Assembly (NCBI GenBank): GCA_009377605.1
Contig: WHTT01000037.1
Location: forward strand, 1 to 60,669
Source of the DNA: Luteitalea sp.
GTDB lineage: Bacteria; Acidobacteriota; Vicinamibacteria; Vicinamibacterales; Vicinamibacteraceae
Reading direction: 5' to 3'
Length of the DNA: 60,669 bases
Shown piece by piece: positions 37,959 through 59,440 of this stretch; position 1 is the stretch's first letter, and every line of letters starts with the position of its first letter. The position numbers and the translations under genes were made by a program. The notes beneath the pieces are model-generated. The model saw only the letters and a program-made list of their open reading frames with translations. It made no database searches and was not told the origin of the DNA.

Positions 37959-38495
37959 ATGGAGGTCAAGGTCGATCGGCAGGACGAGTTGGTGACGGTC
38001 GCCTTGCTTGGCACCGTGGATGGTCGAGCGGCTGTCGAGCTCGAGCGGATACTGCTCGAGACTGCGCGCGATGGCGTGCGGTTCTTGGTCATCGATTTCA
38101 GTGCTGTCAGGCTGTTCGAAGGTGCCGGCATCCGTGTCCTGATCATGCTGAGGCGCAAGCTGGACGCGGCGCAAGGGATGCTCATCCTGTGCGCGCTTCC
38201 TCCTCACGTGCACGACGTGTTGGACGTGGCGGGCCTTGCGGGTCAATTCACGATTGTACCGACCGGCGCGGACGCATTGGCGTGCCTTCCGACCGCGGCG
38301 CCCGAGGATTCGGAACAAAGAGCGCTTGCCCACCGAGTGGTCCGTCTCCTCACCATTGGAGAATCACTACCCGATCCGGGGCTCACCCCGAGCGCCGATC
38401 GCCGCACGAGCTCCACCACGCTCGCCCACCACGTTGCCGATCTGCTGTCCGACGCGCTCGACCGGGAGAGCAGCCTGCCACGGCCCGATCTTTAG
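37959..38495 (+). CDS. STAS-domain protein (anti-sigma factor antagonist-like)
   Basis: 178 residues. Residues 1-105 form a STAS domain (TVALLGTVDGRAAVELERIL, FLVIDFSAVRLFEGAGIRVL). At the site where SpoIIAA-type proteins have DSSG with the phosphorylated Ser, this one reads EGAG, so the regulatory phosphorylation site is missing. A Ser/Thr/His-containing C-terminal tail of ~70 residues follows. Cotranscribed with the FHA gene. Its end overlaps by 4 bp the end of the convergent HExxH gene. Confidence 0.8.
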   Translation: MEVKVDRQDELVTVALLGTVDGRAAVELERILLETARDGVRFLVIDFSAVRLFEGAGIRVLIMLRRKLDAAQGMLILCALPPHVHDVLDVAGLAGQFTIVPTGADALACLPTAAPEDSEQRALAHRVVRLLTIGESLPDPGLTPSADRRTSSTTLAHHVADLLSDALDRESSLPRPDL

Positions 38496-39670
38496 GTCGG
38501 GCGCGGAGAAGCCAAGCGCCGTTCCAGGCGCTCCTGTAGGTCCTCGGCCGCCAGCTCCTCGAGGCTCAAGCCAATCAGCGCATGAATCAAGCGTCCGACG
38601 CCGGCCGCATCGTCGAGATCGAGCTGTGCACGTTCAAGCGTCTCGAGCCGTTCCGTGGCACGATGCACGAGCTGCGCCACGACCGCGAAGGCGCGCGGCG
38701 ACAACGGCGGCTCGCCGCAGTACTGCGCCAGGCGACCGCCGGATCGGAACGACGGATACGCCTCGAGTCCTAGGAAGCGCCGTGCCAGCTCGCCGTGGTA
38801 CTTGCCGAAGGCTCGAACCAGCCCGATGAAGTCCGCCACGAGCTCGTCGGCCGCGTGGCTGCGCAGGGCGCCGAAGAGACGCCACGTGACGTAATGCGTC
38901 AGCTCGTGCTCGCGTCGAATGACCAACGACCGGGCCAGCCACTCCTGCCCTGAAATTCCGGCATCCTCGGCCGACACATCGCTGTAGGGTCCGGAGCTGA
39001 GCAGCACGAATCGGTCCTGATACAGCTCCTTGCGTTGACCGAACGCACGGAGCTCGCTCGACCATGCTTGTTCGTCGCCGGTCGTCCCTTGTCGCTGCTC
39101 CCAATGGGTCCGATACGCGGCGACCCGGTCCCAGTTCGTCAACCCCTTGACCAAGCAAGCCCCCATCGCGGCCGGCACCGAACGAGGCTCGTTGCGTTCC
39201 GTGAACGCTTGCACAAGGGCGACGAAGTCGTCGCGACATGGGGCGACGACAATAGGGATGCAGCCTCCAGCGCTCGGCGCAATCATCAGCTCGAGGTGCG
39301 CCGGCTCGCGCAGGACCAGGCCGGGCGCGAAGGCCGCTGCCGCACCAAAGTCGCCGCGTCGGGTGGCAGCGCGGTAAGCTGGATCGTGGCTCACATTCGT
39401 GCGGATCGGAAAGCGAAGCTGCGGGAACACCGCCTGGAGTGCATCGAACGCACCGACGCGTCGGGCCTCGCGCTCGTACAGCCGCCAGCGCTCGACGTGC
39501 GGCTCGTCGGCGAGCGGCCACCGCTGGGATGTGATTGGTGCGCGGTAGGGATTCTCGGTGTAGGCGAGCACCTCGCCCGCAACGTCGCGCGCCACGCCGA
39601 GGCGGTCGAGCAGTTGCGCACGTTCCTCTCTATGCCAGTTGCCGCCTTGCGAGCTCGGCGAACTTACCAT
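38492..39670 (-). CDS. Putative HExxH metalloprotein in the peptide export operon
   Basis: 392 residues, no signal peptide and no family I can name with certainty. The most telling part is EHELTHYVTWRLFG, an HExxH zinc motif (about residues 251-256), followed ~20 residues later by ADELVADFIG, which could give the third (Glu) ligand as in gluzincins. A Cys pair and an IAPSAGGCIPIVVAPCRDDF segment precede it. It starts 41 bp inside the end of the FHA-ABC exporter gene and is the last gene of the tolC-tolC-hlyD-ABC-ABC operon, so a role in peptide processing or export is plausible. Enzymatic activity is inferred from the motif only. Confidence 0.6.
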   Translation of the reverse strand: MVSSPSSQGGNWHREERAQLLDRLGVARDVAGEVLAYTENPYRAPITSQRWPLADEPHVERWRLYEREARRVGAFDALQAVFPQLRFPIRTNVSHDPAYRAATRRGDFGAAAAFAPGLVLREPAHLELMIAPSAGGCIPIVVAPCRDDFVALVQAFTERNEPRSVPAAMGACLVKGLTNWDRVAAYRTHWEQRQGTTGDEQAWSSELRAFGQRKELYQDRFVLLSSGPYSDVSAEDAGISGQEWLARSLVIRREHELTHYVTWRLFGALRSHAADELVADFIGLVRAFGKYHGELARRFLGLEAYPSFRSGGRLAQYCGEPPLSPRAFAVVAQLVHRATERLETLERAQLDLDDAAGVGRLIHALIGLSLEELAAEDLQERLERRLASPRPT

Positions 39671-42600
39671 CGTGCTCCATCAGCTCCCGATAGGTGCCCA
39701 TCTCGACGATCTGTCCTCCTTCGAGGTAGCAGATCTTGTCGGCGTTGATCACGGTGCTCAGGCGATGCGCAATGACGATGCGGGTTGCTTCCATCTTGTC
39801 GAGGCTCTCGGTCACGATGGCCTGTGTGCGATTGTCCAGAGCGCTCGTCGCCTCGTCGAGATAGATGATCTTCGGCTTGCCGACGATCGCCCGCGCGATC
39901 ATGAGGCGTTGCCGCTGGCCTCCCGACAGCGTCCCGCCGCCTTCAGATACGTAGGTATGCATACCCATCGGCATCTGGCGGATGTCCTCGGCGAGGCCGG
40001 CCTTCTCCGCCGCCTCCCACGCCTCCGCGAGGCTGCGCGACGTCACGCCGATGATGTTGCGATAGATCTCGGTCGGCATCACGCGACTCACTTGGAGCAC
40101 CACGCCAATCTGCTGGCGTACCATCCGCAGGTCCAGCGACGACAGATCCTGTCCATCGTAGAAGATCGATCCGCTCGTTGGCTGCTCGAACCCCAGCATC
40201 AGCCGCATGAGCGTGGACTTGCCACAGCCCGACGGGCCAACGAAGGCGACGAGCTTACCGGGGTTGATCTTGAGCGAGAGGGTCTTGATGATCCAGGGGC
40301 CATCGCTGCTGTATCTGAAATGGACGTGCGACAGCTCGATCTCGCCCCGAAGCTTCCCCGGGAACGCCTTCGAGCGGTCGACTTCAGGGGACGTCGTCAG
40401 GATCGGCTTCAAGCGCTCGTAGAACGGGAGGATGCGGAGCAATTGGAGCGACGCATCACCCAGCGCCTGCATCGCCGCAAGAAAGAGCCCGTAGGCCGCA
40501 GTGAACGCAATGAAATCGCCGGTCGTGAGTCCCGGCTCGTTGGATGCGGCGGCCCGCTGCTGCTCGCCGATGACGACATAGAAGATGGCGATCGACGACA
40601 CCACCGGGAACACAGCGCTGAAGACGGCGACGGCGCTCTGGATGGTGCCAACCGTGAAGCTCAGACGACGCTGCCGAGCAAACTGCTGCGCCCAGACGCG
40701 GAAGGCATGCGGCTCTGCCCCAGAGATACGCAGCTTCGAGACGCCGCTGATCAAGTTGAGCACGAGACCGGCGATCTGACCGATCAATTGAACTTCTCTG
40801 CGCTGGTATCGGAGCTGTGAGTAGTTGCCGACCAGGGTGACGCTCACGTAGACGATCGTCAACGCGACCGCCAACAGCGCCAGGTGCATGCTGTAGGTGA
40901 ACATCTGGACGACAAAGAACACCCCGCTCAGCGAGCCCAGAATCGCCGCGACGCCGGCACCGGAGATCAGTTGCTGAATCTGATCGACACCGTTCGCGCG
41001 ATCGGCGAGGTCTCCCGCAGCATACGTCCGGAAGAAATTCGCGGGCAGGTTCAACAACCGATCCCAGATCGCCGTCTGCAGCGCGTTTTCCATCCGGGCC
41101 TGTAAGCGCACGGTCGCGACGCCCTGGGTCAGCTTGAAGAGCGATCCCGCGAGCGCCGCGAGAAACAGCGCCAGGCCGAAGACCACGAGTGATGAACGGT
41201 CCGCCTGCGGGATCGCCGAGTCGAAGAGCTGACCCGTGAGGTAAGGCGTTGCCGTGCCGAAGATGCCGATCGCGATGGCGGTGACAACGAGCCACCGGAC
41301 GTCGCTCTTGACGCCGCGTGCCGCGAACCGGCCAACGTCGACCACCGACAGCGGCCCGTCCGGAAACGGACGGTAGAACGTGTAGGCGAACGGGGCGAGT
41401 CGCGCCGCCACCGCTTCGGTGACCGGCGCGCGACGCCCCGATCTGGGATCGACATACACGTACTCGTTTGCGCCTCCCGGCAGCAGCGCGACCGGGAGGG
41501 CGCTTTCGCTGAGCTGCCCCAGCAGGGGGCCGTGATCGCGGCTCCACCAGTCGTCGCGAAGCGCGACGACACGTGTCCGGAATGCTGACGCCGTTGCGAT
41601 CGCGGAGACCATCTCTTCGTACGTCAAGTCTTCGGCCGAGGCTGGAGGCCGTCTGACGTCCATTCCCAACGCGTGACCAACCAAGGTGCAGGCTTTGAGC
41701 ACCGGTTCGGTTGCCACGGAGTCCAGGAACTCGCGGGGTGTGACCGCCTCGGCCCGGAGAACCGCTCCAATGGCGTCATACGCCGCTTCCTGCGCTTCGT
41801 CTTGGTGACGCGCCTTTCGCCGCAGCCGCACGTACTCCTCGGCTGCCGCGAGCTGCTTTGCGACGAACTGGCACTCGTAGAGAACCTGATGGAAGACATC
41901 GAGACTGTGCCAGAACGCGGTCTCTCGAATGACCTCGGCTGTCGGCCGCGGCGTCAGCGTCAGATCGCCGAGCTCGTCGCCAATCGGGCGGATCCAGGAA
42001 TCCGGCGTTACCGGAAAGAGCGCTCGCTTGCGCGGGAATACGGGTGTGCTGAGGTCGTCGAACAAGATGCCGCCGCTCCAGGCATCCACCCAGAGAACGC
42101 CTTCCGCCGCCGTGGCCTTGCTCTCGCGGTCCAGCGTGCAGGTCCGCCCAGACTCCAGCACCTGTTCGCCGGCGCGCTTGACCGGGATGTCGCGCGCCAG
42201 CGCCTTCGAGAGCGTCGTAATCCAGGTGTCGACGAGGGCCGCTATCGTGTCGACCTGCTGTGGCGTCCTTGCCAGCTCGCGCAGACGCGACAGACCGATG
42301 CGGCGTAGCCACGTGCCCGGCTTCGCAACGGCGAGGAACCCTGAGTCGCATCCGGGTCGGCGCAAGTCGAAGCCAAAACAGCACTGGCCGGGCATCACGC
42401 CAAGAAAATGTGACCGCGGCCCGACCGGATGTCCCTTTTCCAGCGCCACCGTGAAGACGAGCAGGCCACCGGACACCACGTACCAGAGGCTCGTTGAATC
42501 GTCGAGGAGGAACGGATGGTGCGCAACGGCTTCGATCAGCTCGCCTTCGTCCTCGATTCGCCGTGTTCTCGCCAAGAGGCTCGCGGGCGCCGGGATGACT

Positions 42601-43304
42601 ACGGTCTCACTGAAGTCGAGAATGTTGAGATCGACCTGTGCCGTCGGGTCGTCCTGACCGAGACACTCGAGCACAATCTGGTGGCCAATCCGTATCTGAT
42701 CGCCGGGCCGTAGATCGGCGCTGGCGACTTGCCGGCTGCCCATCCACACGCCGCCTTGGCTGTCGAGGTCGACGATGCGCAGGCCGCTCGATGTGCGCTC
42801 GAGGCGGGCATGCCGTCGCGAAACGTGCTTCTCGCCAAGGACGATGTCGGAGGAGGGGGCGCGTCCGATCGTGGCGGCGTCGCCATCGAGCTGGAAGATG
42901 GTGCCTTCACGAACGTGCTCGCCACCATGGACCACCTTGAGCGCGAGCGGCGGAGCCGGTGCTCGAGGCGCTACGGGCTGAGCCTCGACGGGCGACGAGA
43001 CGCCACCGGTTAGCGGGCGACATTCGAAAACGGTCGATCCAATGCGAAACTGCTGACCGGGCGCGACCACCGTCTCAGCCACGCGATCGGCCCCGACCCA
43101 GACACCGTTGCCGCTGCCGAGATCCACCACACGGATGCCCGAGGGTGTCCATTCCACACGGGCATGCCGCCGCGACACGCTCGGATCCGTGAGCACCACG
43201 CCACAGCTGCCGTCGCGGCCGATGATCACCGATGAATCGACACGAATTGCGTGGTCGGATGGTTGACCCTCGGTGGTGGCGACTACACGGAGGAGAAAGA
43301 CCAT
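39630..43304 (-). CDS. NHLM-type ABC exporter with two N-terminal FHA domains
   Basis: 1224 residues from ATG 43304 (TTG at 43340 is an alternative). Order: FHA1 (residues ~1-85; IGRDGSCGVVL, SVSRRHAR, GSGNGVWVG, all ligand residues present), FHA2 (~120-205; IGRAPSSDIVL, HVSRRHAR, but SQGG where SxNG is usual), a cupin/CNB-like region (~250-380) typical of NHLM transporters (TIGR03797-like), a helical linker, six membrane helices (~650-950), and the ATPase (GPSGCGKSTLMRL, LSGGQRQRLMIARA, IIYLDEATSALD). No C39 peptidase. It is paired with the peptidase-containing exporter upstream. FHA domains on such an exporter imply recruitment or gating by phosphothreonine. Confidence 0.88.
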   Translation of the reverse strand: MVFLLRVVATTEGQPSDHAIRVDSSVIIGRDGSCGVVLTDPSVSRRHARVEWTPSGIRVVDLGSGNGVWVGADRVAETVVAPGQQFRIGSTVFECRPLTGGVSSPVEAQPVAPRAPAPPLALKVVHGGEHVREGTIFQLDGDAATIGRAPSSDIVLGEKHVSRRHARLERTSSGLRIVDLDSQGGVWMGSRQVASADLRPGDQIRIGHQIVLECLGQDDPTAQVDLNILDFSETVVIPAPASLLARTRRIEDEGELIEAVAHHPFLLDDSTSLWYVVSGGLLVFTVALEKGHPVGPRSHFLGVMPGQCCFGFDLRRPGCDSGFLAVAKPGTWLRRIGLSRLRELARTPQQVDTIAALVDTWITTLSKALARDIPVKRAGEQVLESGRTCTLDRESKATAAEGVLWVDAWSGGILFDDLSTPVFPRKRALFPVTPDSWIRPIGDELGDLTLTPRPTAEVIRETAFWHSLDVFHQVLYECQFVAKQLAAAEEYVRLRRKARHQDEAQEAAYDAIGAVLRAEAVTPREFLDSVATEPVLKACTLVGHALGMDVRRPPASAEDLTYEEMVSAIATASAFRTRVVALRDDWWSRDHGPLLGQLSESALPVALLPGGANEYVYVDPRSGRRAPVTEAVAARLAPFAYTFYRPFPDGPLSVVDVGRFAARGVKSDVRWLVVTAIAIGIFGTATPYLTGQLFDSAIPQADRSSLVVFGLALFLAALAGSLFKLTQGVATVRLQARMENALQTAIWDRLLNLPANFFRTYAAGDLADRANGVDQIQQLISGAGVAAILGSLSGVFFVVQMFTYSMHLALLAVALTIVYVSVTLVGNYSQLRYQRREVQLIGQIAGLVLNLISGVSKLRISGAEPHAFRVWAQQFARQRRLSFTVGTIQSAVAVFSAVFPVVSSIAIFYVVIGEQQRAAASNEPGLTTGDFIAFTAAYGLFLAAMQALGDASLQLLRILPFYERLKPILTTSPEVDRSKAFPGKLRGEIELSHVHFRYSSDGPWIIKTLSLKINPGKLVAFVGPSGCGKSTLMRLMLGFEQPTSGSIFYDGQDLSSLDLRMVRQQIGVVLQVSRVMPTEIYRNIIGVTSRSLAEAWEAAEKAGLAEDIRQMPMGMHTYVSEGGGTLSGGQRQRLMIARAIVGKPKIIYLDEATSALDNRTQAIVTESLDKMEATRIVIAHRLSTVINADKICYLEGGQIVEMGTYRELMEHDGKFAELARRQLA

Positions 43305-43391
43305 CTCGGTCACGTGCGGGTCGGGTGTCGTGCTGGCCAAAATCAGGATTCAGGATTCAGGATGCGGGGCGGCTCCCTCCGACGGAGGGCA

Positions 43392-45886: not shown

Positions 45887-47119
45887 CTACGAAGCACCGA
45901 GCGTGCTGCGAATCAACGGTAACACGTAGGTGATCGGCGCGCGCCGGTCGACAATCACCGAGACGGTCACCGGCGTGCCGCCAACGATCCGAAACGGCGG
46001 GCCTTCCGACGAGGACCACGTGAAGCCGCTCGGTGTCTTGCGGTTCTCGACGAGATCGGCCCTTACCTCGAATGTTGCGCCCTCCGCGCTCAGCTGCTGG
46101 GCGAGGGTCTGGTTGGCTGTTGTCGCCAAGATCATCTCGGGAGACACGGGGTATGCGCCGACGTGACTCACCGACGCCCTCAAGAAGCCGTACTCCTCGC
46201 GCTTGACGTTTGTCGGCGAGACCTCTGCCTCCATCCCTAGGTTGATCCGCTTGCCGGAGTTCGCGCTGACGTAGACGATCGGCTCGAAGCTCGACGAGGA
46301 AGGCTCGATGATGGCGACAACCTCACCGTTGCGGACGCGATCCCCAACGCGCTTGTTGACTTCGATGACGCGACCGGCCACACGGCTGATGAGGCGCGTG
46401 CGGGATGCCGCTGTCGAGAGCGTCTGTTCCAGGCCCTCCTCGGCGAGCACGACGCTGGTGTCCCTGGAGCGTCGTCGCTGCTCGATGCTGACGAGGACGG
46501 ACCGTTGGCCATTGATCTGTGTCCGCAGCGCGGTGAGACTGCCATTGAGGCTCAGCGCTTGCTGCTCGAGCTGCTGGACGCGTGATTTGGTGACGAGCCC
46601 CTTGGTCAGCAGGGCGCGCTTCGACTTGAGGTCCTCTTCGAGAGCGGCGAGCTGCCCACGGACACGCTTGATGTCCGCCTCGTAGTTGGCGATGTTGGCA
46701 CGCGCCTGTGAGATCTGCTGTGTGTCGTCGACGAGGGCCGCATCGCGTTCGGCGACTGCCTCGTCGTGTCGAACCTGCGCCTCACTGATCAATTCATCGG
46801 TGCCTTGCCCCGCGACCTCGCCGACCACTTGACCCGGCTCGACGGTCTCGCCGACACGCGTCTCCAGCTGCACGAGGCTCCCGTCACCCGGCGCGCGGAT
46901 CTCCCTGAGGCTGCCGCCGCCAATCAGCATGCCGTAGCCGTCGACGCGTTCCGGAATGGTCGCGAAGATACTCCAGATCAAGACGGCGATCAGCACACCG
47001 CCGATGGTCCAGAGCGCCACCCACCCCAACGGCGAGGTGACCTGCATGAGCGTATCGAGCCGCTCCGGTGACGCAAGCTTGTCGAGCGCTGCTTTTCGGA
47101 AGAGCCGATGCTGTTCCAT
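45887..47119 (-). CDS. HlyD-family secretion protein of the NHLM type
   Basis: A 410-residue membrane fusion protein. A single N-terminal membrane helix (WVALWTIGGVLIAVLIWSIF, about residues 32-52), a lipoyl-like half motif (GDGSLVQLETRVGETVEPGQ), a coiled coil (~105-240), the second half (RVAGRVIEVNKRVGDRVRNG) and a C-terminal beta-barrel. It matches NHLM secretion proteins (TIGR03794-like). It would connect both ABC exporters to the TolC channels encoded upstream. Strong GGAGG ribosome site. Confidence 0.9.
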   Translation of the reverse strand: MEQHRLFRKAALDKLASPERLDTLMQVTSPLGWVALWTIGGVLIAVLIWSIFATIPERVDGYGMLIGGGSLREIRAPGDGSLVQLETRVGETVEPGQVVGEVAGQGTDELISEAQVRHDEAVAERDAALVDDTQQISQARANIANYEADIKRVRGQLAALEEDLKSKRALLTKGLVTKSRVQQLEQQALSLNGSLTALRTQINGQRSVLVSIEQRRRSRDTSVVLAEEGLEQTLSTAASRTRLISRVAGRVIEVNKRVGDRVRNGEVVAIIEPSSSSFEPIVYVSANSGKRINLGMEAEVSPTNVKREEYGFLRASVSHVGAYPVSPEMILATTANQTLAQQLSAEGATFEVRADLVENRKTPSGFTWSSSEGPPFRIVGGTPVTVSVIVDRRAPITYVLPLIRSTLGAS

Positions 47120-47180: not shown

Positions 47181-49388
47181 TCATGGCAAGCTGACGAAAT
47201 CTGTCGCCGAGAACTGTACAGCTTCGGCGTCCGTTCCCTCATTGGCGAACGAGACTATTTCACCCGCTTCGTATTTCAGACGTGCGAGCGTGCTGAAATA
47301 CAGCTGTAACTGACGCACGAGCGTCAACTGGTCAGTGGTGGCCTCGTCTTCGGTCACGAGCGCGTCGATGAGCGTGATCTCGCCCGCTTCGAAGAGCTGA
47401 CGGCTCCCGTCACGGGTCTCGAGGACGTTCTCGACGACCTCGCGATAGTGTTCCACTGCCTCCCTCGTCGTCTGCATGGTATTGCGGACCTCGACAACGT
47501 TTTGCCGAATCACGCGCTCAGTGTCGGCGAGCTCAATCTCGGCCGACCGCAATGTCGCCTCGGCTTGCGCCAGCCGGCCCTTGGCGCGATTGTTCCCGAA
47601 CGGAAAGCTCACCGTGAGCTGCGCGACCACGAACGGTTCCCATCGTCCCAGCATCGATCGGTACACGCCGCGCGGCGAGTAGTATCGCGCGGGGGAGTCC
47701 CGCTCCGGTAGCGGCTCGAAGTCACTGTAGATCGGATCTTCCTCATCGGGAAGGAACCGTGGAAACGGGCTCTCGTAGAGGTTGCTGAAGCCGCCGCTGA
47801 GATTGAAGGTGAACGTGCGCCGGAGGTTGGCCCGCGCGGCCCGCGCCAGCGCGTCCGAGGCTTCGCGCACCCGCTCGAGGGCACGCGTGTCGCGGCGCCG
47901 AGACGAGGCGAGCCTGAGCAGATCGTCGAGCACCGGCGCGCCACTGGGCGGCTCGGCAAATGCCTCGCTCGCGAGAGGCGTGTCGTCGAGCGTGTCGACG
48001 TCGAGCCCGGCCGCTTCCACCAAGCTGATCCGGGCCTCCGCGAGCGCTGTCCGTGCCTCTCTGAGCGAGCTGGAGAGACTCGCGGCGCGTGCCTGCGCCC
48101 GTGCGAGGTCGATCTTTGGCAGCTCCTCCGCGGTGACGAGCTGCGCGGTGAGCTTGACGTAATCCGCGTGGCGCGCGGCCGATTCCTCGAGCAAACGGAC
48201 GCTCTCATGCGCTGCGACGAGGTTCAGGTAGGCCAAGACCGTGCGATACACCTCCTCGGCGACCGTGTGGCGCATCTGTTCGGTGCGCGCAACGGAGGTG
48301 GACGCTGCAGAGCGCTCGGGACCCGCCACCGCCGTGCTGCCAAAACCATTGCCGAGGGGAATGTCGAGCGCCAACGAGGCGTGCGAGGGAAAGCGCGGCG
48401 GGAGGCCCATTCCGCCGTGGGTGGGGTCCATGATCTTGTCGCGGTAGTTCTCCTCTTCGCTCTGCACCAGGAGGCTGCCGCTCACGGTGAGCCCGCTGCG
48501 GAACGGCTTCGTGAACCCAGCACTGAGTGAAAAGCTGCGGCGAAACTGATCTTCTGGTAGCGGGCCGAGCCGCTCCAGGCCGAGCCGCGCACGAGTGGCC
48601 ACTGCCTCGGAGATTTCCTCGAGCAGCGGAAATGTCTCGTTGAGGGCTTGCGAGCCGCTGATGAGCGCGCCTTCGAGGCCCAGATCTCCGGCAAGGTTGA
48701 TCCGCCTGAACAACCTGTCCAGCAGGCGTTGCTCGAGGCTGCCATTGAGCTGTTGCGAGCAGAGATCGCGAAACCCAGACAGCATGTCTTCCAGGTCGCC
48801 CGTGGGGGAAAGCGGCAGCTCGCGACCACCCTGAAGCGCCTGCTCTACCTGCTCAACGAGGTCGAAGGTCAGAAGCCCCGGCTGGCGGTTGACGCCTGGA
48901 GGCAGCGCAAACAGAATCGCGCCGGTGTCGAGATCGATGTCGAACGGACAGGGTGGTGGGTCCGGGTGGAGACCCGCGATGGCGTCCCGCATGGCAACGT
49001 TGAGATCGGTGAAGCTGTCGGCGATCACGTCCAGAACGCGACGCTTTTGTTCTTCCGCGTCCAACAAGAACGGGAGCACCGGCTGCTGCGTGTATTCGAA
49101 ACCGACTCCTGTGCGGACGGCCAGGTCGAACACGCCACGCTCCGCTCGATGAAGGCCAGCCGCGATGCGTGCGGCCTGCGCCGCTTGCACGATGCGCGGT
49201 TGGTGGCGAATTGTGAGCTGCACGGCCTCCGCGAGCGTGATTCGAGGTCCCGAGGGCGCCGGAGCCTTGGCGTCGGGCACGAAGAGATCCGCCGCCAGGA
49301 CGCTCACCTCCTGGGCCGCACCTTGGTCTGGGAGCATGACTGTGAGCGCACACGCCACGACGAGCGTGATTGCCGAACGAGAGCTCAC
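47181..49388 (-). CDS. Very large TolC-family outer membrane protein 2
   Basis: 735 residues, against about 420-500 for ordinary TolC proteins. Signal peptide (ITLVVACALTVMLPDQGAAQ), first repeat starting ITLAEAVQLTIRHQPRIVQA, and C-terminal repeat with VAQLTVSFPFGNNRAKGRLA and the family end GEITLIDALVTEDEATTDQL. The extra ~220 residues lie near the N-terminus (about residues 85-300), containing a Cys/Pro segment (DPPPCPFDIDLD). The GTG start overlaps the stop of tolC1. Second of a tandem pair, so the export apparatus may use a mixed trimer. Confidence 0.88.
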   Translation of the reverse strand: MSSRSAITLVVACALTVMLPDQGAAQEVSVLAADLFVPDAKAPAPSGPRITLAEAVQLTIRHQPRIVQAAQAARIAAGLHRAERGVFDLAVRTGVGFEYTQQPVLPFLLDAEEQKRRVLDVIADSFTDLNVAMRDAIAGLHPDPPPCPFDIDLDTGAILFALPPGVNRQPGLLTFDLVEQVEQALQGGRELPLSPTGDLEDMLSGFRDLCSQQLNGSLEQRLLDRLFRRINLAGDLGLEGALISGSQALNETFPLLEEISEAVATRARLGLERLGPLPEDQFRRSFSLSAGFTKPFRSGLTVSGSLLVQSEEENYRDKIMDPTHGGMGLPPRFPSHASLALDIPLGNGFGSTAVAGPERSAASTSVARTEQMRHTVAEEVYRTVLAYLNLVAAHESVRLLEESAARHADYVKLTAQLVTAEELPKIDLARAQARAASLSSSLREARTALAEARISLVEAAGLDVDTLDDTPLASEAFAEPPSGAPVLDDLLRLASSRRRDTRALERVREASDALARAARANLRRTFTFNLSGGFSNLYESPFPRFLPDEEDPIYSDFEPLPERDSPARYYSPRGVYRSMLGRWEPFVVAQLTVSFPFGNNRAKGRLAQAEATLRSAEIELADTERVIRQNVVEVRNTMQTTREAVEHYREVVENVLETRDGSRQLFEAGEITLIDALVTEDEATTDQLTLVRQLQLYFSTLARLKYEAGEIVSFANEGTDAEAVQFSATDFVSLP

Positions 49389-51385: not shown

Positions 51386-51691
51386 GAATCCTCCTCGAGC
51401 GCGGGCTGTGGGTCCAATACTCTTCTGCTCGTAAGCAGTCCGTCGCGCCCGGCATGAACGGTTGGCGATTCTACCAAAGAAACTGCGAGCATCCGGCAGC
51501 CGGACATGGGTGCCGCTCAGGTGCCTCTTATCGATGAGGTGTCGCGCGAGATCAGGGAAGCGCCTGCCTGGTGGGAAATTGCCGGTGTTACTCCGGTGTG
51601 CTAGGCTGGGCGTTCGGGCCGCTGGCAGCCGTGAGAGGTGTCAGGAGGTGGACGGGATCGCGCGGTGTCGTGGCGGGACCGAGAGGGAGTA
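51386..51691. other. Divergent promoter region of the export operon
   Basis: About 300 bp between tolC1 and the plus-strand lipoprotein gene. On the minus strand a TAGAAT (complement of 51468-51473) could be a -10, but no convincing -35 is seen. I did not find a -24/-12 element. No gene. Confidence 0.4.
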
Positions 51692-52105
51692 ATGGGGAGT
51701 ACGGCTCGTCGCGTGTCTCGCGTCTCACATCGACGGATCTGGCTCGGCCTGATTTTGATGGGCTGTGCCGGTTGTGCCGATTCGCCCGTCGGTCCGTCCC
51801 TGAGCGCCGTCACGGTGAGTGACGTGCGCTTGCGGCCGACGACCGAGAATGCCACGCTGTGCTGCTGCCGCGTCCTTGCCACCAGCGCGAACCGCAACAG
51901 CGTGCCTGTTCATGTGACGGTCAAGTTTGCGGCCCATGACGACCAGCGTGAGCAGCCGCTGTCACGGATCCTCTATTTCATCAAGGATTTTCAGCCGGAC
52001 ACGGAGCGGGCAATCGAGGCGTCCGGATTCTTCCTGCCGTGCGCAGCCATCCGCGATGTGCGAATGGAGATCGATGTAACGGGAATAGCGGATCCGCCCT
52101 TCTAG
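51692..52105 (+). CDS. Small lipoprotein of unknown function
   Basis: 137 residues from the ATG at 51692 (GAGAGGGAG just upstream). Lipoprotein signal RRIWLGLILMGCAGC with the acylated Cys, then a ~110-residue domain rich in beta strands with a CCC triplet (NATLCCCRVLA) and one more Cys (LPCAAI). No family recognised. Lies between the export operon and the sigma54 activator gene, same direction as the latter. Confidence 0.7.
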   Translation: MGSTARRVSRVSHRRIWLGLILMGCAGCADSPVGPSLSAVTVSDVRLRPTTENATLCCCRVLATSANRNSVPVHVTVKFAAHDDQREQPLSRILYFIKDFQPDTERAIEASGFFLPCAAIRDVRMEIDVTGIADPPF

Positions 52106-52224: not shown

Positions 52225-53310
52225 ATGCCGGACAGGCGCGGCATGAGTGAGACCGCTGTGCGTCTGCGCGCGCTGTCGGCTGAACAGTGGGGTGAGCAGC
52301 GCGCGCTCGATATGATTGGGTTGTCGCCTGCCCTGAGCGAAGCGCAAGCCAAGGTCGAGAAGATCGCGCGCTATCGAGAGCCCGTCCTGATCACCGGAGA
52401 GAGCGGCTCTGGCAAGGAGCTGTTCGCGCAGGCCATCTACCTGCTCGGCCCGAGCAGAGGGCAGCCCTTCGTTGCCGCCAACTGTCCACAGTACCAAGAA
52501 GGCGATCTCACCGTCAGTGAGCTCTTCGGCCATACGAAAGGGAGCTTCACGGGTGCGGTCGCCGATCGAAAAGGTGCGTTCGAGGAAGCCGACGGCGGCG
52601 TCATCTTCCTGGACGAGATTGCCGATCTCCGCCCCAGTGCACAGATGATGCTGCTGCGTGCGCTCTCGACCGGCGAGATTCGCCCACTGGGTGCCACGCG
52701 ATCGCGGAGTGTCGATGTGCGCGTCGTGTCAGCAACCAACGGTCATCTGAACCATCTGGTCGCGACCAAGCAGTTCAGATTCGATCTCTTGTTTCGCCTT
52801 CGACAGTTTCACATTGCCATCCCCCCGCTCCGCGAGCGCGGCGATGACTGGCGGCTGCTGACCGACTTCTGGCTCGACAGGCTGGCGGCCAAGTACGGCG
52901 TCGCCAAGCGCTTCTCCGCAGCCTCGCTCAAGCTGCTCGGGACGTACGATTGGCCCGGCAACGTGCGCCAGCTCATTGGCGTCGTCAAGACCGGTTATGC
53001 GATGGCGGATGACGATGTGATTGAACCGGCGGAGTTTGTCTCGTATCTCGAAGAATCTGAGGGCATGCGCTCGGCTGAACAGCCGAGCCTCTACGAGCGG
53101 ATCGTCAAGCAGGAGGAGCCGTTCTGGACCGTCGTTTACGAGGCTTTCATCCGGCGCGACCTGAACCGTTCCCAAGTTCGCGGACTTATCAAGGCCGGCC
53201 TCAACGCCTCCGGCGGGAACTACAGACGGTTGCTGGAGCTCCTCCGCCTGCCGGCGTCCGACTACCAACGGTTCATGGACTTTCTTCGCCATCACGATCT
53301 CAAGCCGTGA
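52225..53310 (+). CDS. Sigma54-dependent transcriptional activator (bEBP) without sensor domain
   Basis: 361 residues. After ~35 residues comes the AAA+ domain: Walker A TGESGSGKELFAQAIY, GSFTGA loop (canonical GAFTGA with A to S), Walker B GGVIFLDEIADL, second region of homology LFRLRQFHIAIPPLRERGDD and YDWPGNVRQL. The C-terminal ~100 residues hold a predicted DNA-binding domain of the type ending YQRFMDFLRHHDL, often seen in FHA-linked activators. There is no receiver, GAF or FHA domain, so control may come from level of expression or a partner. The perfect -24/-12 promoter 120 bp downstream is the evident target. Confidence 0.9.
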   Translation: MPDRRGMSETAVRLRALSAEQWGEQRALDMIGLSPALSEAQAKVEKIARYREPVLITGESGSGKELFAQAIYLLGPSRGQPFVAANCPQYQEGDLTVSELFGHTKGSFTGAVADRKGAFEEADGGVIFLDEIADLRPSAQMMLLRALSTGEIRPLGATRSRSVDVRVVSATNGHLNHLVATKQFRFDLLFRLRQFHIAIPPLRERGDDWRLLTDFWLDRLAAKYGVAKRFSAASLKLLGTYDWPGNVRQLIGVVKTGYAMADDDVIEPAEFVSYLEESEGMRSAEQPSLYERIVKQEEPFWTVVYEAFIRRDLNRSQVRGLIKAGLNASGGNYRRLLELLRLPASDYQRFMDFLRHHDLKP

Positions 53311-53428: not shown

Positions 53429-53444
53429 TGGCACGCGGGTTGCT
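53429..53444 (+). promoter_or_regulatory. Sigma54 (-24/-12) promoter of the precursor gene
   Basis: TGGCACG-CGGG-TTGCT: both elements match the consensus, and GG (53430-53431) and GC (53442-53443) are exactly ten bases apart. It sits 75 bp before the precursor start codon and directly after the sigma54 activator gene. The -24 half is also part of a palindrome, GTGCCA-TC-TGGCAC (53421-53434). A possible activator site, GTTGG-N10-CCAAC, is found near 53333-53352. Confidence 0.9.
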
Positions 53445-53519: not shown

Positions 53520-53846
53520 ATGGCACAGAAGATGACTCGCGGCGAGGTTCAGGATCTGCTCGGCAAGTTCGCTACCGAGGATGCGAAGTATCGCGAGGCT
53601 CTGCTGGCTGACCCGAAGGGCATCATGGAGCGTCAGCTCAACACGTCGCTGGGCAACTTCAACGTGAAGGCTGTCCAGGACACGGCTGACACGATTCACA
53701 TCGTCGTGCCGCACGTCGCTGCTGAGGGTGAGCTGAGCGACGCGGATCTCGAGAAGGTCGCAGGCGGCTTCTTCGACGGCGGCGACGTCAACGTCGACTG
53801 CGAGGCGCGGCAGGGCGGCGCCAGCGTCATCCAACTCAGCCTGTAG
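53520..53846 (+). CDS. NHLP-leader precursor peptide (lanthipeptide/RiPP precursor)
   Basis: 108 residues, perfect AGGAGG ribosome site. Residues 1-83 resemble the nitrile-hydratase-like leader (LLADPKGIMERQLNTSLGNF, VQDTADTIHIVVPHV) and end with the processing site LEKVAGG (81-83 AGG). The 25-residue core after it contains one Cys (94), Ser102 and Ser107 and no Thr, plus several Gly and Asp. At most one lanthionine ring can form, with Ser C-terminal to Cys. A second GG at 87-88 is an alternative cleavage site. Encoded just before lanM and behind a sigma54 promoter. Leader cleavage by the C39 exporter is inferred. Confidence 0.92.
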   Translation: MAQKMTRGEVQDLLGKFATEDAKYREALLADPKGIMERQLNTSLGNFNVKAVQDTADTIHIVVPHVAAEGELSDADLEKVAGGFFDGGDVNVDCEARQGGASVIQLSL

Positions 53847-53861
53847 TCAGTGCTCGTCTTT

Positions 53862-53910
53862 CGGCGGTGGGGGTGCGACGCTTGCATGTCGCACCCCGCC
53901 GTCTCTCTTT
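53862..53910 (+). terminator. Strong hairpin with U-rich tail between precursor and lanM
   Basis: GGGGTGCGAC (53870-53879) and GTCGCACCCC (53888-53897) form a perfect 10-bp stem, extended by GGC/GCC pairs, followed by GTCTCTCTTT. It should stop most transcripts after the precursor gene, giving an excess of precursor over enzyme. Confidence 0.8.
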
Positions 53911-53911
53911 A

Positions 53912-53939
53912 GGTAGGGCCGCCTCGCCGAGGCGGCCGT
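53912..53939. repeat. REP palindrome (GTAGGGC family) before lanM
   Basis: GGTAGGGC + GCCTCGCCGAGGC + GGCCGT, same as at 20130 and 26162. It immediately follows the terminator U-tract. Confidence 0.88.
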
Positions 53940-53964: not shown

Positions 53965-56900
53965 GTGACCATCGATGAACGGCAGCAGCTCACGCTTGGC
54001 GCCTGCACGGTCTTCGAGCGCGCCGCGCTCGCTAGAGCACAGACCCCACCTCGAGAGACATTCATCGTCAGCGAGCAAGCCGCCCTCTGCCTCCGCGCGT
54101 GGCTCCAGACAGTCTCGCCAGGCGACCCCGCAGCGTTCGAGCGCCGGCTCGGTTGGGACGGTCTGGATCTCTCGACGGTAACGGCGGGGCTCTCCATGTC
54201 CGCCGGTGGGCTGCCAGAGCCTGACTGGCTGCGCTACGTCGAGGAGGTCATCCTGCTCGCGCCGAGCGTGGCCGATGAGTTGCGCCACCGCCAGCTACCA
54301 GAGAGTGAGTTGTTCGACGCGGAGGAAGGGCCACCGTTCGTGGACCTCCTGGTGCCCGCTCTGCGCGTGAGCAGACGCGCCCGCCGGGCCGCTGTCCCGG
54401 CAGGCACGATCGACGCAGTGCTGTCACCCGTGGCGATCGAGGAGCTCGAGAGGCAGCTGTTACGCGATCTCTCCGGTCTCGCGGCGCTCGCGATGCTCGA
54501 GGATTTCAAGCAGGAACGCACAGCGCATTCCGAGAGCTATGCCGCCTTCACAGACCGGATGCTCAGCGGTAGCCTCACGGCATTCTTTCTGCGCTATCCG
54601 GTCCTTGCGAAGCAGTTGGCGTGGAGTATCGGTCGGTGGGTGCGGACGACGACCGAGCTCGTGCACCGTCTTGAGGAGGACCGCGATGCGATCACTCGTG
54701 AATTCGGCGGCGGAGGGCCGCTCGGGCGCGTTCAGTCGCTCGAGCCGGCGCTGTCGGATCCGCACGACGGTGGCTCCCGGGTCATCGCGCTCCAGTTCGA
54801 GTCGGGCCAGCGACTCATCTACAAGCCAAGACATGTCGACCTCGAGCGCGTCTTCGGCGAGCTCGTCGAGTGGCTAGCCTCTCGCGGTCTGGAGCCACGC
54901 CAGCGGAGCGCGCGCCTGCTCGACCGTCAGGGGTACGGGTGGATGGAGGTCGTCGATGAGGAGCCGTTCTCCAACGTGGACGAGGTCAGGCGCTACTACC
55001 GACAGAGCGGCGGGCTGCTCTGTCTCGCGCATGTGCTACGTGCCGAAGACCTTCACATGGAGAACGTCGTCGCGACGCGTGACGGTCCCGTGCTGATCGA
55101 TCTGGAGCTGACGTTGCAACCCCTGGCTCCTGCTGTGGCCCCGAACAGACCGGCAGGCAGCGCGGCTCTCGAGCACGAACCGCCTGCCGGCGACAATTGC
55201 CTGACGAGTGGCCTTCTGACGTTCATCGATGGATCGGAACGGGTCTTCGACATGGGAGGGCTGCGCGGCACGGGAAGAGGGGCGACAGCAATTGCGCGTC
55301 GAGCATGGCGCGCACTCGGAACCGATGCCATCGGCTACGTCGACGAGTGGACCTTCGAGACCCGCGTCAGAAATCAAGTGGTGCTCGACGGGGTACGGCA
55401 GCGCCCAGACGACTACGCAGACGAGGTCTGCCGCGGGTTCGAGGACGCGTATCGCTTTCTCATGACCCATCGCGACGAGCTCGGGGCGCCGGACGGCCCG
55501 CTGTCTCGCTTTTCTGGCTGCGTCAGCCGCGTGCTCCCGCGATCCAGCAGTCAGTACGGATTGTTGAGGTACGTGCTGGTGCGGCCGCAGTACCTGAAGG
55601 ATGGCTGCCGCTGGAGCGCCGCGCTCGATGCGCTCAATCGAACGCTCAGCCAGGCACGGGAACGACCCGCGTTCTGGCCTCTCGTGGTCGCCGAACGAGG
55701 GGCGCTCGAAGCGCTCGACATTCCACGTTTCACCGTCGTGACCAACGAGACGGCGATCCGCGCCGGCGGGAAGCCGGTCATGAGCGGCTATTTCCGACAG
55801 TCCGGTCTGTCAGCGGTACACGATCGGCTCAATCGCCTATCGGCAGACGATCTACGCGTTCAGCTCGATTACTTGGACCGAGCCCTGCACGAAGCAGTTC
55901 ACACCCGGTTCGAGACCGAACCCCCTGCCGCGCAACGTGACACCGAGGAAGGGGGATCGCCCGCCGTTCTGGTGGCTCACGCAGCATGGATCGGAGCGGA
56001 GCTGCTCCGGCACAGCGGGCGGCGACGACCGGCTCACGGCGAGCCCTCGAAACGCCTGGCTCTGGAGCCGGCTCCTCACCACCACCTGTACGATGGGAGT
56101 GTTGGGCTGCCGATCTTCCTCGCCGCGCTCTCGGTGACCACTGGTGATGAGCGGTGGCGTACGGCCGCGCGCGATGCCGTTCGACCGCTCAGGGCAGCGG
56201 TCGATGGCAACGACAGCAAGTGGGCAGAGGATGCCATCGGCGGCACCTCCGGCCTCGGCTCCATCGTCTATGGCCTGACGACGGTCGGGAGCTTGCTGGG
56301 AGATACGGCTTGTCTCGAGCTGGCACTCCGAGTTGCGGCCCGGCTGACCCTCGCACGCGTTGATTCGGATGCGGCGCTCGACGTGACGAGTGGCGCCGCC
56401 GGCGCCATACTCGGCCTGCTCGCGTTGCATCGCGAAACCGGCGAAGCGTCGTTGCTCGCACAGGCAGTGCACTGCGGCGAGCATCTCTGCGCCTGCAAGC
56501 TTTCGTGCAAAGAGGGCGCCGCGTGGCGGACTGCGGACGGCCGCGTGTTCACTGGCTTTGCGCATGGCGTCGCGGGCATCGCGTACGCGCTTGGCCGGTT
56601 GTTCGAGGTGAGCGGGGACGAGCGCTTCCGTCTCGCCGCCGCGGAAGGATACCGCTACGTCGCCTCACGCTTCCTGCCTGGACAGGCGAAGTGGCCCATC
56701 ATCGACGCCTCGAACGAGCGCCGCCCCGCGAGCGCGCCTGACACTGGTGCGGCGACAATGACGGCCTGGTGCCACGGGGCGCCGGGCATCGGCCTTGCAA
56801 TCGGGCTGGCGAGTGTCGACGTTGTCGACGCGGCACTGCGCGATCAGCTCGATCGAGTGATTGCGAGGGGCGGTGCGGGCTCCTCGTTGCATCGAAGCGA

Positions 56901-57234
56901 TCACCTCTGCTGCGGCAACTTGGGCAGAGCCGAGGCACTGCTCACCGTGGGCCGACGCCTCGTGCGACCCGACGTCGTGCAGGCAGCCGCGCACCTGGCG
57001 CGGCGCGTCACTGAGCGGGCGCGCGCGAACGGCCACTTCTGCCTCACCTCCGACCGGTTCACGTACCGCATCTGGGATCCGGGCTTTTTTCGCGGACTGT
57101 CAGGCATTGGATACGCGTTACTGCGTTTCGCCATGCCTTGGCGCTTGCCCTCCGTCGTGGCGTTCGAGGTACCACCGAACACGTTTCCCGCAACAGCTCC
57201 CCGCCCAACCGCTGAGACGCGTCGGCTGGGCTGA
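53965..57234 (+). CDS. lanM: Class II lanthipeptide synthetase, CCG (ProcM-like) type
   Basis: 1089 residues. N-terminal DUF4135 dehydratase domain with kinase-like residues: Lys287 in LIYKPRHVD, Asp362/His364/Asn367 in EDLHMENV, Asp379 and Glu381 in LIDLELT. C-terminal LanC-like cyclase domain (from ~680), with zinc ligands Cys936 in WCHGAPG and Cys982-Cys983 in LCCGNLG. Having CCG rather than CHG is the hallmark of the ProcM group, which has three Cys ligands and broad substrate tolerance. It would phosphorylate and dehydrate Ser in the precursor and add Cys. GTG start; a GTG only 118 bp after the precursor stop, behind a terminator and a REP. Confidence 0.95.
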   Translation: MTIDERQQLTLGACTVFERAALARAQTPPRETFIVSEQAALCLRAWLQTVSPGDPAAFERRLGWDGLDLSTVTAGLSMSAGGLPEPDWLRYVEEVILLAPSVADELRHRQLPESELFDAEEGPPFVDLLVPALRVSRRARRAAVPAGTIDAVLSPVAIEELERQLLRDLSGLAALAMLEDFKQERTAHSESYAAFTDRMLSGSLTAFFLRYPVLAKQLAWSIGRWVRTTTELVHRLEEDRDAITREFGGGGPLGRVQSLEPALSDPHDGGSRVIALQFESGQRLIYKPRHVDLERVFGELVEWLASRGLEPRQRSARLLDRQGYGWMEVVDEEPFSNVDEVRRYYRQSGGLLCLAHVLRAEDLHMENVVATRDGPVLIDLELTLQPLAPAVAPNRPAGSAALEHEPPAGDNCLTSGLLTFIDGSERVFDMGGLRGTGRGATAIARRAWRALGTDAIGYVDEWTFETRVRNQVVLDGVRQRPDDYADEVCRGFEDAYRFLMTHRDELGAPDGPLSRFSGCVSRVLPRSSSQYGLLRYVLVRPQYLKDGCRWSAALDALNRTLSQARERPAFWPLVVAERGALEALDIPRFTVVTNETAIRAGGKPVMSGYFRQSGLSAVHDRLNRLSADDLRVQLDYLDRALHEAVHTRFETEPPAAQRDTEEGGSPAVLVAHAAWIGAELLRHSGRRRPAHGEPSKRLALEPAPHHHLYDGSVGLPIFLAALSVTTGDERWRTAARDAVRPLRAAVDGNDSKWAEDAIGGTSGLGSIVYGLTTVGSLLGDTACLELALRVAARLTLARVDSDAALDVTSGAAGAILGLLALHRETGEASLLAQAVHCGEHLCACKLSCKEGAAWRTADGRVFTGFAHGVAGIAYALGRLFEVSGDERFRLAAAEGYRYVASRFLPGQAKWPIIDASNERRPASAPDTGAATMTAWCHGAPGIGLAIGLASVDVVDAALRDQLDRVIARGGAGSSLHRSDHLCCGNLGRAEALLTVGRRLVRPDVVQAAAHLARRVTERARANGHFCLTSDRFTYRIWDPGFFRGLSGIGYALLRFAMPWRLPSVVAFEVPPNTFPATAPRPTAETRRLG

Positions 57235-58768: not shown

Positions 58769-59440
58769 GTGTCTGAGTCCATCGAAATCAACAGCGGTGA
58801 CTTCGTCTTCCGGGAGGGCGAGGCGGGCGGTGAGCTCTACGTGATCGAGGAAGGCCAGGTGGAGCTCATCGCGGGTCCGCACGACCAACGGCGGACGACA
58901 CTCGATGTTGGCGACTTCTTCGGTGAGCGATCGCTTCTCGACGATGTGCCGCGGGAGGTGTCTGCGCGAGCTCTCACCCGCTGTCGACTGCTTCGTCTCG
59001 ACCGTGCAGGCTTCTCGGAGATCGTCCGACAAAGCCCCGAGATCGCGGTGCTGATGGTTCGCCATCTGAGCCGGCGCCTCGGCTCGGGTGGAACCGAGAT
59101 GCCCTCGTCCGCCGTGTTCCTGCACGAGGCGTCGGAGACCGCGATTCCGCTACACCCGCAGTGCACCATCGGCCGGGTCGACCGATCGACGGGTGTGGCG
59201 CCCGACGTGGACCTCACGCCATTCGATTCGGACAAGACATTGAGCCGGCGCCACGCGAAGGTCGCGATGAGGCCCGACGGCTACTATCTGCGAGAGGATG
59301 AAGGGCGCAACGGCACCTTCGTCAATGAACGGCGCCTCGATCCGGGCGTCGAAGTCCGACTCGCGGATGGCGATCGTCTGCGCTTCGGCTTCGTCCACGT
59401 CGTGTTCCGCCTGGCCAGTGGTTCTGACAACACCCCTTGA
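58769..59440 (+). CDS. Cyclic-nucleotide-binding plus FHA domain protein
   Basis: 223 residues, soluble. Residues ~5-115 are a CRP-like cyclic-nucleotide-binding fold (FVFREGEAGGELYVIEEGQV, GDFFGERSLLDDVPREVSAR; the phosphate-binding FGExxLL...R pattern is kept). Residues ~130-218 are an FHA domain (CTIGRVDR, TLSRRHAKV, EGRNGTFVNERRL) with all key residues. No DNA-binding domain. It combines a small-ligand sensor with a phosphothreonine reader. GTG start 12 bp after the barrel gene; no Shine-Dalgarno seen, perhaps read by coupling. Confidence 0.87.
   Translation: MSESIEINSGDFVFREGEAGGELYVIEEGQVELIAGPHDQRRTTLDVGDFFGERSLLDDVPREVSARALTRCRLLRLDRAGFSEIVRQSPEIAVLMVRHLSRRLGSGGTEMPSSAVFLHEASETAIPLHPQCTIGRVDRSTGVAPDVDLTPFDSDKTLSRRHAKVAMRPDGYYLREDEGRNGTFVNERRLDPGVEVRLADGDRLRFGFVHVVFRLASGSDNTP

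What the first reader, a model, noticed from the sequence alone, without database searches (positions are those of the whole stretch)
53758..53846. Precursor core with a single Cys and Ser only on its C-terminal side
After VAGG the 25-residue core has one Cys (94) and two Ser (102, 107), no Thr. Only one ring is possible, and in the less common direction (Ser after Cys). It may be a minimal lanthipeptide, a dehydroalanine-bearing or thiol-reactive signal, or a peptide that is exported without cyclisation.
Basis: partly seen in the sequence, partly recalled or inferred. Interest (0 to 1): 0.75.

Follow-up and report, generated by a model that had tools for sequence, protein, structure and literature searches.

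The report
Conserved one-ring lanthipeptide in Acidobacteria
A short bacterial peptide gene whose product can form only a single, backwards thioether ring is not a broken lanthipeptide but one member of a conserved, tightly regulated family in Acidobacteria, which makes the untested class of single-ring lanthipeptides easy to test.

Summary
In detail: the ORF at 53520-53846 (+) encodes a 108-residue precursor whose 25-residue core after VAGG has one Cys (94), two later Ser (102, 107) and no Thr. It sits before a LanM with intact catalytic motifs and beside a C39/ABC/HlyD/TolC export cassette. It is the only NHLP-type precursor and LanM found in the genome.

The sparse core is a family trait, not decay. 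I recovered 32 complete related cores (29 distinct) from Acidobacteriota. All 29 have exactly one Cys; 28 have a Ser/Thr in a [ST]-x-[VIT]-x-[ILVFM] motif 7-13 residues after it. One (G607) has exactly one Cys and one Thr. Close pairs show mainly synonymous change in the core. The LanMs carry the three-Cys zinc set of enzymes known to close rings in this "reverse" direction. A sigma-54 promoter lies before 24 of 31 precursors, and a sigma-54 activator gene precedes the precursor in most loci.

Most likely product: a peptide with one Cys94-Ser102 lanthionine, cut at Gly-Gly and exported. No chemistry was measured; its role is inferred. New variant of a known kind.

The parts
53520..53846 (+). 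precursor gene, 108 aa; NHLP-like leader (residues 1-83, ending VAGG) and 25-aa core
   Evidence: TIGR03793 leader_NHLP 45.2 bits over residues 7-83, below the curated cut-off 50.9
53769..53843 (+). core FFDGGDVNVDCEARQGGASVIQLSL; predicted ring Cys94-Ser102
   Evidence: family alignment; core table
53429..53444 (+). sigma-54 (-24/-12) promoter TGGCACgcgggTTGCT, 91 nt before the ATG
   Evidence: 11 of 11 consensus positions, the only such match on either strand of the window; conserved in relatives
52240..53310 (+). sigma-54-dependent activator (AAA+ domain, no receiver domain found); start codon uncertain (the ORF opens at 52039)
   Evidence: PF00158 190 bits; in the same place in relatives
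53863..53901 (+). strong hairpin between precursor and LanM, possible attenuator/partial terminator
   Evidence: fold of 53847-53925 -35.3 kcal/mol, z -2.2; no T-run terminator called
53965..57234 (+). LanM, 1089 aa, DUF4135 dehydratase + LanC-like cyclase, three-Cys (CCG) zinc site
   Evidence: TIGR03897 659 bits over cut-off 304; PF13575, PF05147; catalytic residues
43392..45794 (-). NHLM ABC1: C39 peptidase + permease + ATPase, cuts at Gly-Gly and exports
   Evidence: TIGR03796 1084 bits over cut-off; PF03412 Peptidase_C39; Cys and His motifs present
39630..43340 (-). NHLM ABC2 exporter half with two N-terminal FHA domains
   Evidence: TIGR03797 891 bits over cut-off; PF00498 two stretches
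45887..47119 (-). NHLM HlyD-type adaptor
   Evidence: TIGR03794 258 bits over cut-off
47181..49388 (-). TolC-type outer-membrane protein
   Evidence: PF02321
49385..51385 (-). second TolC-type outer-membrane protein
   Evidence: PF02321
58769..59440 (+). cyclic-nucleotide-binding + FHA protein, conserved in the cluster
   Evidence: PF00027, PF00498; conserved

Best explanation
The gene encodes the precursor of a class II lanthipeptide with a single ring. RNA polymerase with sigma-54, switched on by the neighbouring activator, transcribes it. LanM binds the NHLP-like leader, dehydrates Ser102 (perhaps also Ser107), and its three-Cys zinc cyclase adds the thiol of Cys94 to the resulting dehydroalanine: one lanthionine whose Cys lies on the N-terminal side, enclosing EARQGGA. 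The C39 domain of ABC1 cuts after Gly83 and ABC1/ABC2-HlyD-TolC export the 25-residue peptide. The arrangement is a selected family trait in Acidobacteriota. Shown by sequence: the genes, catalytic motifs, conserved Cys and Ser/Thr, promoter site, and selection on the core in relatives. Inferred: dehydration, the ring and its partner, cleavage and export. The biological role is a guess: a secreted, condition-triggered effector or signal.
For: One Cys in 29 of 29 distinct cores and a Ser/Thr in a shared motif 7-13 residues later in 28 of 29; alignment column of Cys94 invariant in 12 of 12, Ser102 aligned with Ser/Thr in the other rows as read from the alignment. G607 (FLDHNCNKAQGGINTHVEIKLV) has one Cys and one Thr only, so any ring must join these two. 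Core changes mostly synonymous: G487/G433 12 synonymous and 0 replacement, G537 copies 6 and 0 while their leaders differ by 16 and 17. LanM: dehydratase residues and three zinc Cys present in 22 of 22 complete family LanMs. ProcM-clade enzymes with three zinc Cys close rings in both directions and three of four nostolysamide rings have the Cys first (PMC13060382, passages). Export cassette over curated cut-offs. Sigma-54 site at 9 or more of 11 positions in 24 of 31 precursors against 236 of 3000 random 400-nt stretches; rpoN present.
Against: No mass data exist. The precursor scores below the curated NHLP cut-off (45.2 against 50.9). Ser107 could be the partner. Position 528 of LanM (by motif T512 of CylM) is Ser here, as in most relatives. 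The core pairs tested for selection are few; other pairs show 1-3 replacements, and no such test was possible for the window's own core. Seven of 31 precursors lack a good sigma-54 site.
Confidence: 0.7

Rival explanations
1. The peptide is dehydrated but not cyclised: it leaves the cell with a free Cys and one or two dehydroalanines and acts as a thiol-reactive or thiol-bearing agent.
For: Only one Cys; Haft et al. 2010 note that NHLPs without Cys beside LanM presumably stay at the dehydrated stage (PMC2887384, passages). A Cys-free core lies beside a LanM in relative G580:C340.
Against: Cys and the downstream Ser/Thr are conserved together in 28 of 29 cores and the three zinc Cys of the cyclase are kept in 22 of 22 LanMs; a cyclase without work should decay.
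Confidence: 0.11
2. The single ring joins Cys94 to Ser107 (near the C-terminus), with Ser102 left as Ser or dehydroalanine.
For: Ser107 is also C-terminal to the Cys, and many relatives have a second Ser near the end (...NASLF).
Against: The position of Ser107 is Asn in G064 and N075bin57 and absent in G607, whereas Ser102 aligns with a Ser/Thr throughout.
Confidence: 0.08
3. The core is a decaying remnant or an accidental ORF, and the LanM acts on some other peptide.
For: Only one Cys; the short core is unlike textbook lantibiotics; the genome is a 382-contig assembly and could miss genes.
Against: Ribosome-binding site and GC3, sigma-54 promoter, 64% identity to G064 over the precursor, same pattern in 29 distinct cores, no other NHLP or Nif11 precursor in the genome over a cut-off.
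Confidence: 0.04
4. The peptide is exported unmodified, or joined through Cys94 as a disulfide or mixed thiol, the LanM being inactive on it.
For: The leader is only NHLP-like, and NHLM exporters also serve other modified peptides (PMC2887384, passages).
Against: LanM gene directly after the precursor in the window and in relatives, with all catalytic motifs kept.
Confidence: 0.07

Closest known systems
NHLP (nitrile-hydratase-leader) / NHLM microcin systems with LanM (Haft et al. 2010, PMC2887384, passages read)
   Same: Long nitrile-hydratase-like leader ending in Gly-Gly, C39-ABC1 / ABC2 / HlyD cassette over cut-offs, LanM next door.
   Different: That paper describes NHLP cores as short and highly variable; here the core pattern is conserved between genera and families. 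Our leader is below the TIGR03793 cut-off. A sigma-54 promoter and activator are not mentioned in the passages read.
Nostolysamides (NpuA/NpuM/NpuN) and selidamides (PMC13060382, passages read)
   Same: NHLP-type system as reported there, class II synthetase with three zinc Cys, one substrate per enzyme, rings with the Cys N-terminal to its partner; many relatives (not the window) also have a GNAT gene next to LanM.
   Different: Nostolysamides have four rings, our core allows one; the window has no GNAT and no Lys in the core.
Prochlorosins / ProcM (PMC10783134, PMC11251773 and PMC13060382, passages read)
   Same: Three-Cys (CCG) cyclase motif; Gly-Gly leader cleavage.
   Different: Prochlorosins come as many hypervariable cores with 2-3 Cys and a Nif11-type leader; here there is one precursor and a conserved one-Cys core.
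Predicted single-cysteine lanthipeptides (179 in PMC11251773, abstract and passages read)
   Same: One Cys, lanthionine synthetase next door; described there as experimentally under-investigated.
   Different: The word Acidobacteria does not occur in that paper's held main text; its reported single-Cys subgroups are labionin-type or Streptomyces CxSxxS. The present motif with a ring of 7-13 residues spacing is not described in the passages read.

Membership tests
class II lanthipeptide (LanM) system | bifunctional synthetase: DUF4135 dehydratase + LanC-like cyclase | tested here: met
   PF13575 329 bits, PF05147 150 bits, TIGR03897 659 bits over cut-off
class II lanthipeptide (LanM) system | catalytic residues of dehydratase and cyclase | tested here: met
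   D, H, K, D, H, N, D, E, R and zinc Cys present, assigned by motif from CylM; no CylM sequence was aligned
class II lanthipeptide (LanM) system | precursor with Ser/Thr and Cys next to lanM | tested here: met
   118 nt between stop and GTG start
class II lanthipeptide (LanM) system | lanthionine or methyllanthionine in the product | not testable with these tools
   needs mass spectrometry
NHLP precursor family (TIGR03793) | score over the curated cut-off 50.9 bits | tested here: not met
   45.2 bits, E 6e-12, whole profile covered: it works like an NHLP leader but is not filed as a member
NHLM export cassette | ABC1 with C39 peptidase, ABC2, HlyD over cut-offs | tested here: met
   TIGR03796, TIGR03797, TIGR03794 all over cut-off; PF03412
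ProcM-type (three-Cys) LanM | three Cys as zinc ligands (CCG motif) | tested here: met
   C936, C982, C983 in the window LanM
ProcM-type (three-Cys) LanM | place in the ProcM clade of the LanM tree | not tested
   no ProcM sequence was aligned; a quick tree of 42 Acidobacteriota LanMs puts the family on one side of a branch with support 48 only
prochlorosin system | many precursors with hypervariable cores for one LanM | tested here: not met
   one precursor in the genome; conserved cores in relatives
selidamide (GNAT-acylated lanthipeptide) | GNAT gene in the cluster and an acylatable Lys or Orn | tested here: not met
   no GNAT match in the window and no Lys in the core; present in many relatives

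The most novel reading that the evidence does not exclude
A phylum-wide family of natural one-ring lanthipeptides with a fixed reverse (Cys-first) lanthionine or methyllanthionine, made on demand by sigma-54 control and exported through a transporter with FHA (phosphothreonine-reading) domains beside a Ser/Thr kinase gene: a regulated signal or effector peptide rather than a combinatorial antibiotic, and the first single-ring class II lanthipeptide.
Probability: 0.45. Interest if true: 0.72.

Novelty: new variant of a known kind. Interest (0 to 1): 0.58.

Why it matters
A 2024 survey counted 179 predicted single-cysteine lanthipeptides and called them experimentally under-investigated (PMC11251773). 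This family supplies evolutionary evidence that such a peptide is a real product, predicts the exact ring (Cys to the Ser/Thr of the [ST]-x-V-x-[IL] motif), and offers a member (G607) in which only one pairing is possible. It also provides a regulatory handle, sigma-54, and a clean case to study how three-Cys cyclases choose ring direction, since there is no competing Cys.

Tried and rejected
Composition alone as proof: rejected, since one Cys in 25 residues is expected about one time in six. A decayed core: rejected because the pattern is conserved. A scan of genome contigs with the single precursor found nothing; the profile of three precursors found seven loci, all titled Acidobacteria except Terracidiphilus (also Acidobacteriota), which has unlike, Cys-free cores. 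The genus mate G161 has only a 206-aa LanM piece of the two-Cys-one-His type and no precursor match, so it is no orthologue. A LanM tree to show one origin of the family was only a quick tree; support for the family branch was 48, so one origin is neither shown nor excluded; its row G562 is a LanM on another contig and may not be the partner. A regex search for precursors beside unrelated LanMs found little. As control, four relatives in the same order (G152-G155) have three-Cys LanMs next to NHLP-like precursors with two Cys in the core, so one Cys is not a general property of such LanMs. The class search was run twice on the same class by mistake.

Rows dropped before the core count (family rule: E about 1e-20 or better and a complete core): G454 two copies (reading frame breaks in the core, probably assembly), G535, G536 and the second G426 copy (contig end), G578 (N run in the core); dropped as not of the family by weaker E-value and unlike core: G608 (5), G580:C340, G600:C52, and the weaker NHLP-like hits outside G064 and G044. 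AS16 and G533 are the same contig, as are BJ1 and G454, and SCN 69-37 and G064, judged by equal contig length and sequence. In the motif count the regex caught a chance match in G570c, counted as a miss.

Full report
OBSERVATION. The ORF at 53520-53846 (+) reads MAQKMTRG...LEKVAGG-FFDGGDVNVDCEARQGGASVIQLSL, 108 aa. A ribosome-binding site (AGGAGG) precedes the ATG and the reading frame has the highest GC3 of the three frames on this strand. The gene is real; the coordinates in the finding begin inside the VAGG codons.

SURROUNDINGS. Downstream (118 nt after the stop codon) lies a LanM of 1089 aa (53965-57234; TIGR03897 659 bits; DUF4135 and LANC_like). Upstream lies a sigma-54 activator, and on the other strand two TolC-type proteins, a HlyD adaptor and two ABC exporter halves, of which the first has a C39 peptidase. 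The three NHLM transport models pass their curated cut-offs; the precursor's own model, leader_NHLP, is covered end to end but scores 45.2 bits against a cut-off of 50.9. The genome (97.5% complete by its listing) has no second NHLP precursor and no Nif11 precursor over a cut-off, one LANC_like protein over the cut-off and one LanM.

RELATIVES. Searching the order (162 genomes), a draw of the phylum (396 genomes), the class of two relatives (148 genomes) and genome contigs gave related precursors in Acidobacteriota only; other phyla were covered only by genome contigs, whose pattern scan is not very sensitive. In the class search 25 of 148 genomes had a match at E 1e-10 or better. From all calls I kept 32 complete cores, 29 distinct; the dropped rows are listed under Tried and rejected.

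THE CORE PATTERN. All 29 distinct cores have exactly one Cys. In 28 of 29 the first match to [ST]-x-[VIT]-x-[ILVFM] lies 7-13 residues after it, most often 9. Examples: own C-EARQGGA-S-VIQL; G064 C-TALALGGAAAGN-T-VTQI; N075bin57 C-DKAIGAGN-T-VTVL; G447 C-GDSDGAMN-T-VVEI; G487 C-EVQGLGFG-T-RVEI; G607 C-NKAQGGIN-T-HVEI. Three of 29 cores (own, G064, G607) have no Ser/Thr before the Cys; in G607 the Thr of the motif is the only Ser/Thr at all. So the 'only after Cys' feature is not general, but these three cores show which residue can be the partner.

SELECTION. Between G487 and G433 the core differs at 12 codons, all synonymous; between two G537 copies at 6, all synonymous, while their leaders differ at 16 synonymous and 17 replacement codons; the G611 copies 6 and 2; three G562 pairs 3 and 2, 3 and 1, 4 and 1; G447/G533 1 and 3; another G537 pair 2 and 2; G447/G538 identical. 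These are raw counts, few and not corrected for sites. They suggest that the core is held constant, unlike the hypervariable cores reported for NHLPs (PMC2887384, passages) and prochlorosins (PMC11251773, passages).

THE ENZYME. In 22 of 22 complete family LanMs (24 family rows less a duplicate and a truncated one) the residues that by motif correspond to CylM D252, H254, K274, D347, H349, N352, D364 and R506 are present, as are a catalytic His and three zinc Cys; the T512-like position is Ser or Thr (CylM numbers from passages of PMC4550811; E366 and the NisC His number are recalled). Three zinc Cys mark the ProcM type, reported to cyclise in both directions, and in nostolysamides three of four rings have the Cys first (PMC13060382, passages). 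The family's LanMs may or may not share one origin (quick tree, support 48). As control, G152-G155 of the same order have CCG LanMs next to two-Cys NHLP-like cores.

REGULATION. A perfect 11/11 sigma-54 element lies at 53429-53444, 91 nt before the ATG, the only such match in the window. Among 31 precursors 24 have a site with at least 9 of 11 positions within 250 nt, 21 at least 10, and 6 all 11; of 3000 random 400-nt stretches from the same loci (true sites included) 236 reach 9 and 30 reach 10. Of the seven misses, G537, G537_1, G570 and G570_2 share their locus with a copy that has a site; G611 (two copies) and G507 show none. The activator gene lies upstream in most loci whose contigs reach that far, and rpoN is present in the window's genome. 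No search was made for sigma-54 sites at other genes of the cluster.

CLUSTER. Relatives keep the set cNMP-FHA, activator, precursor(s), LanM, TolC, TolC, HlyD, ABC1, ABC2, often with DUF7005 and FHA genes. Many add a HAD-type hydrolase between activator and precursor and a GNAT after LanM. A GNAT match lies in 15 of the 24 loci looked at, including a partial one in G580; the 13 of these with a usable core all have Lys in it; the window has neither GNAT nor core Lys, and several of the nine others end at a contig edge. GNATs in similar clusters acylate Lys1 (PMC13060382, passages). The exporter half ABC2 of the window carries two FHA domains and a Ser/Thr kinase lies at 33883-36762, which hints at phosphorylation-controlled export; this is inference.

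MECHANISM AND VERDICT. Best reading: sigma-54-induced synthesis, dehydration at Ser102, one Cys94-Ser102 lanthionine, cleavage after Gly83, export. The role is unknown; on-demand expression and a constant core favour a dedicated effector or signal over a library of antibiotics, as inference. It is a class II lanthipeptide system by its enzyme, works like the NHLP and ProcM systems, and differs from the described ones in its conserved one-ring core.

LITERATURE. I searched for lanthipeptide with nitrile hydratase and Acidobacteria, with class II and Acidobacteria, with single cysteine and LanM, with sigma-54, with NHLP, with RiPP/Vicinamibacter, and for selidamides and saw no description of this family in the listings or in the passages read; subscription journals are mostly not held, so absence from print is not claimed.

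Noticed in passing
39630-43340 (-): The NHLM ABC2 exporter half has two N-terminal FHA domains; with a Ser/Thr kinase at 33883-36762 and FHA proteins at 36919-37938 and 58769-59440 this suggests phosphothreonine-controlled export.
   Followed up: partly
51638-52105 (+): Small possible lipoprotein with a CCC motif, no Pfam match, with similar genes near the cluster in G064, G044 and N075bin57; possible partner or immunity protein.
   Followed up: partly
L045 13810-14763, L047 13497-14471 and others: GNAT gene right after LanM in many relatives but not in the window or G064; their single-ring peptides may be acylated on Lys.
   Followed up: partly
L046 8280-9776, L073 10966-12447 and others: About 500-aa protein with N-terminal HAD hydrolase domain between the sigma-54 activator and the precursor in many relatives, missing in the window; role unknown.
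   Followed up: no
L133 (G580:C340): A second LanM in G580 lies on a contig with an NHLP-like precursor without any Cys in the core.
   Followed up: no
L047 8154 and 10001 (G454, BJ1): Two tandem precursor copies both lose the reading frame at the same place in the core, where the contig of a relative (L048) also ends; probably an assembly problem at repeats.
   Followed up: partly
53863-53901 (+): Strong hairpin between precursor and LanM genes (z -2.2); GC-rich hairpins also follow many relatives' precursors: possible attenuator that keeps LanM below the precursor.
   Followed up: partly
38492-39670 (-): DUF7005 protein (PF22541, 391 bits) next to ABC2, also beside ABC2 in several relatives; function unknown.
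   Followed up: no
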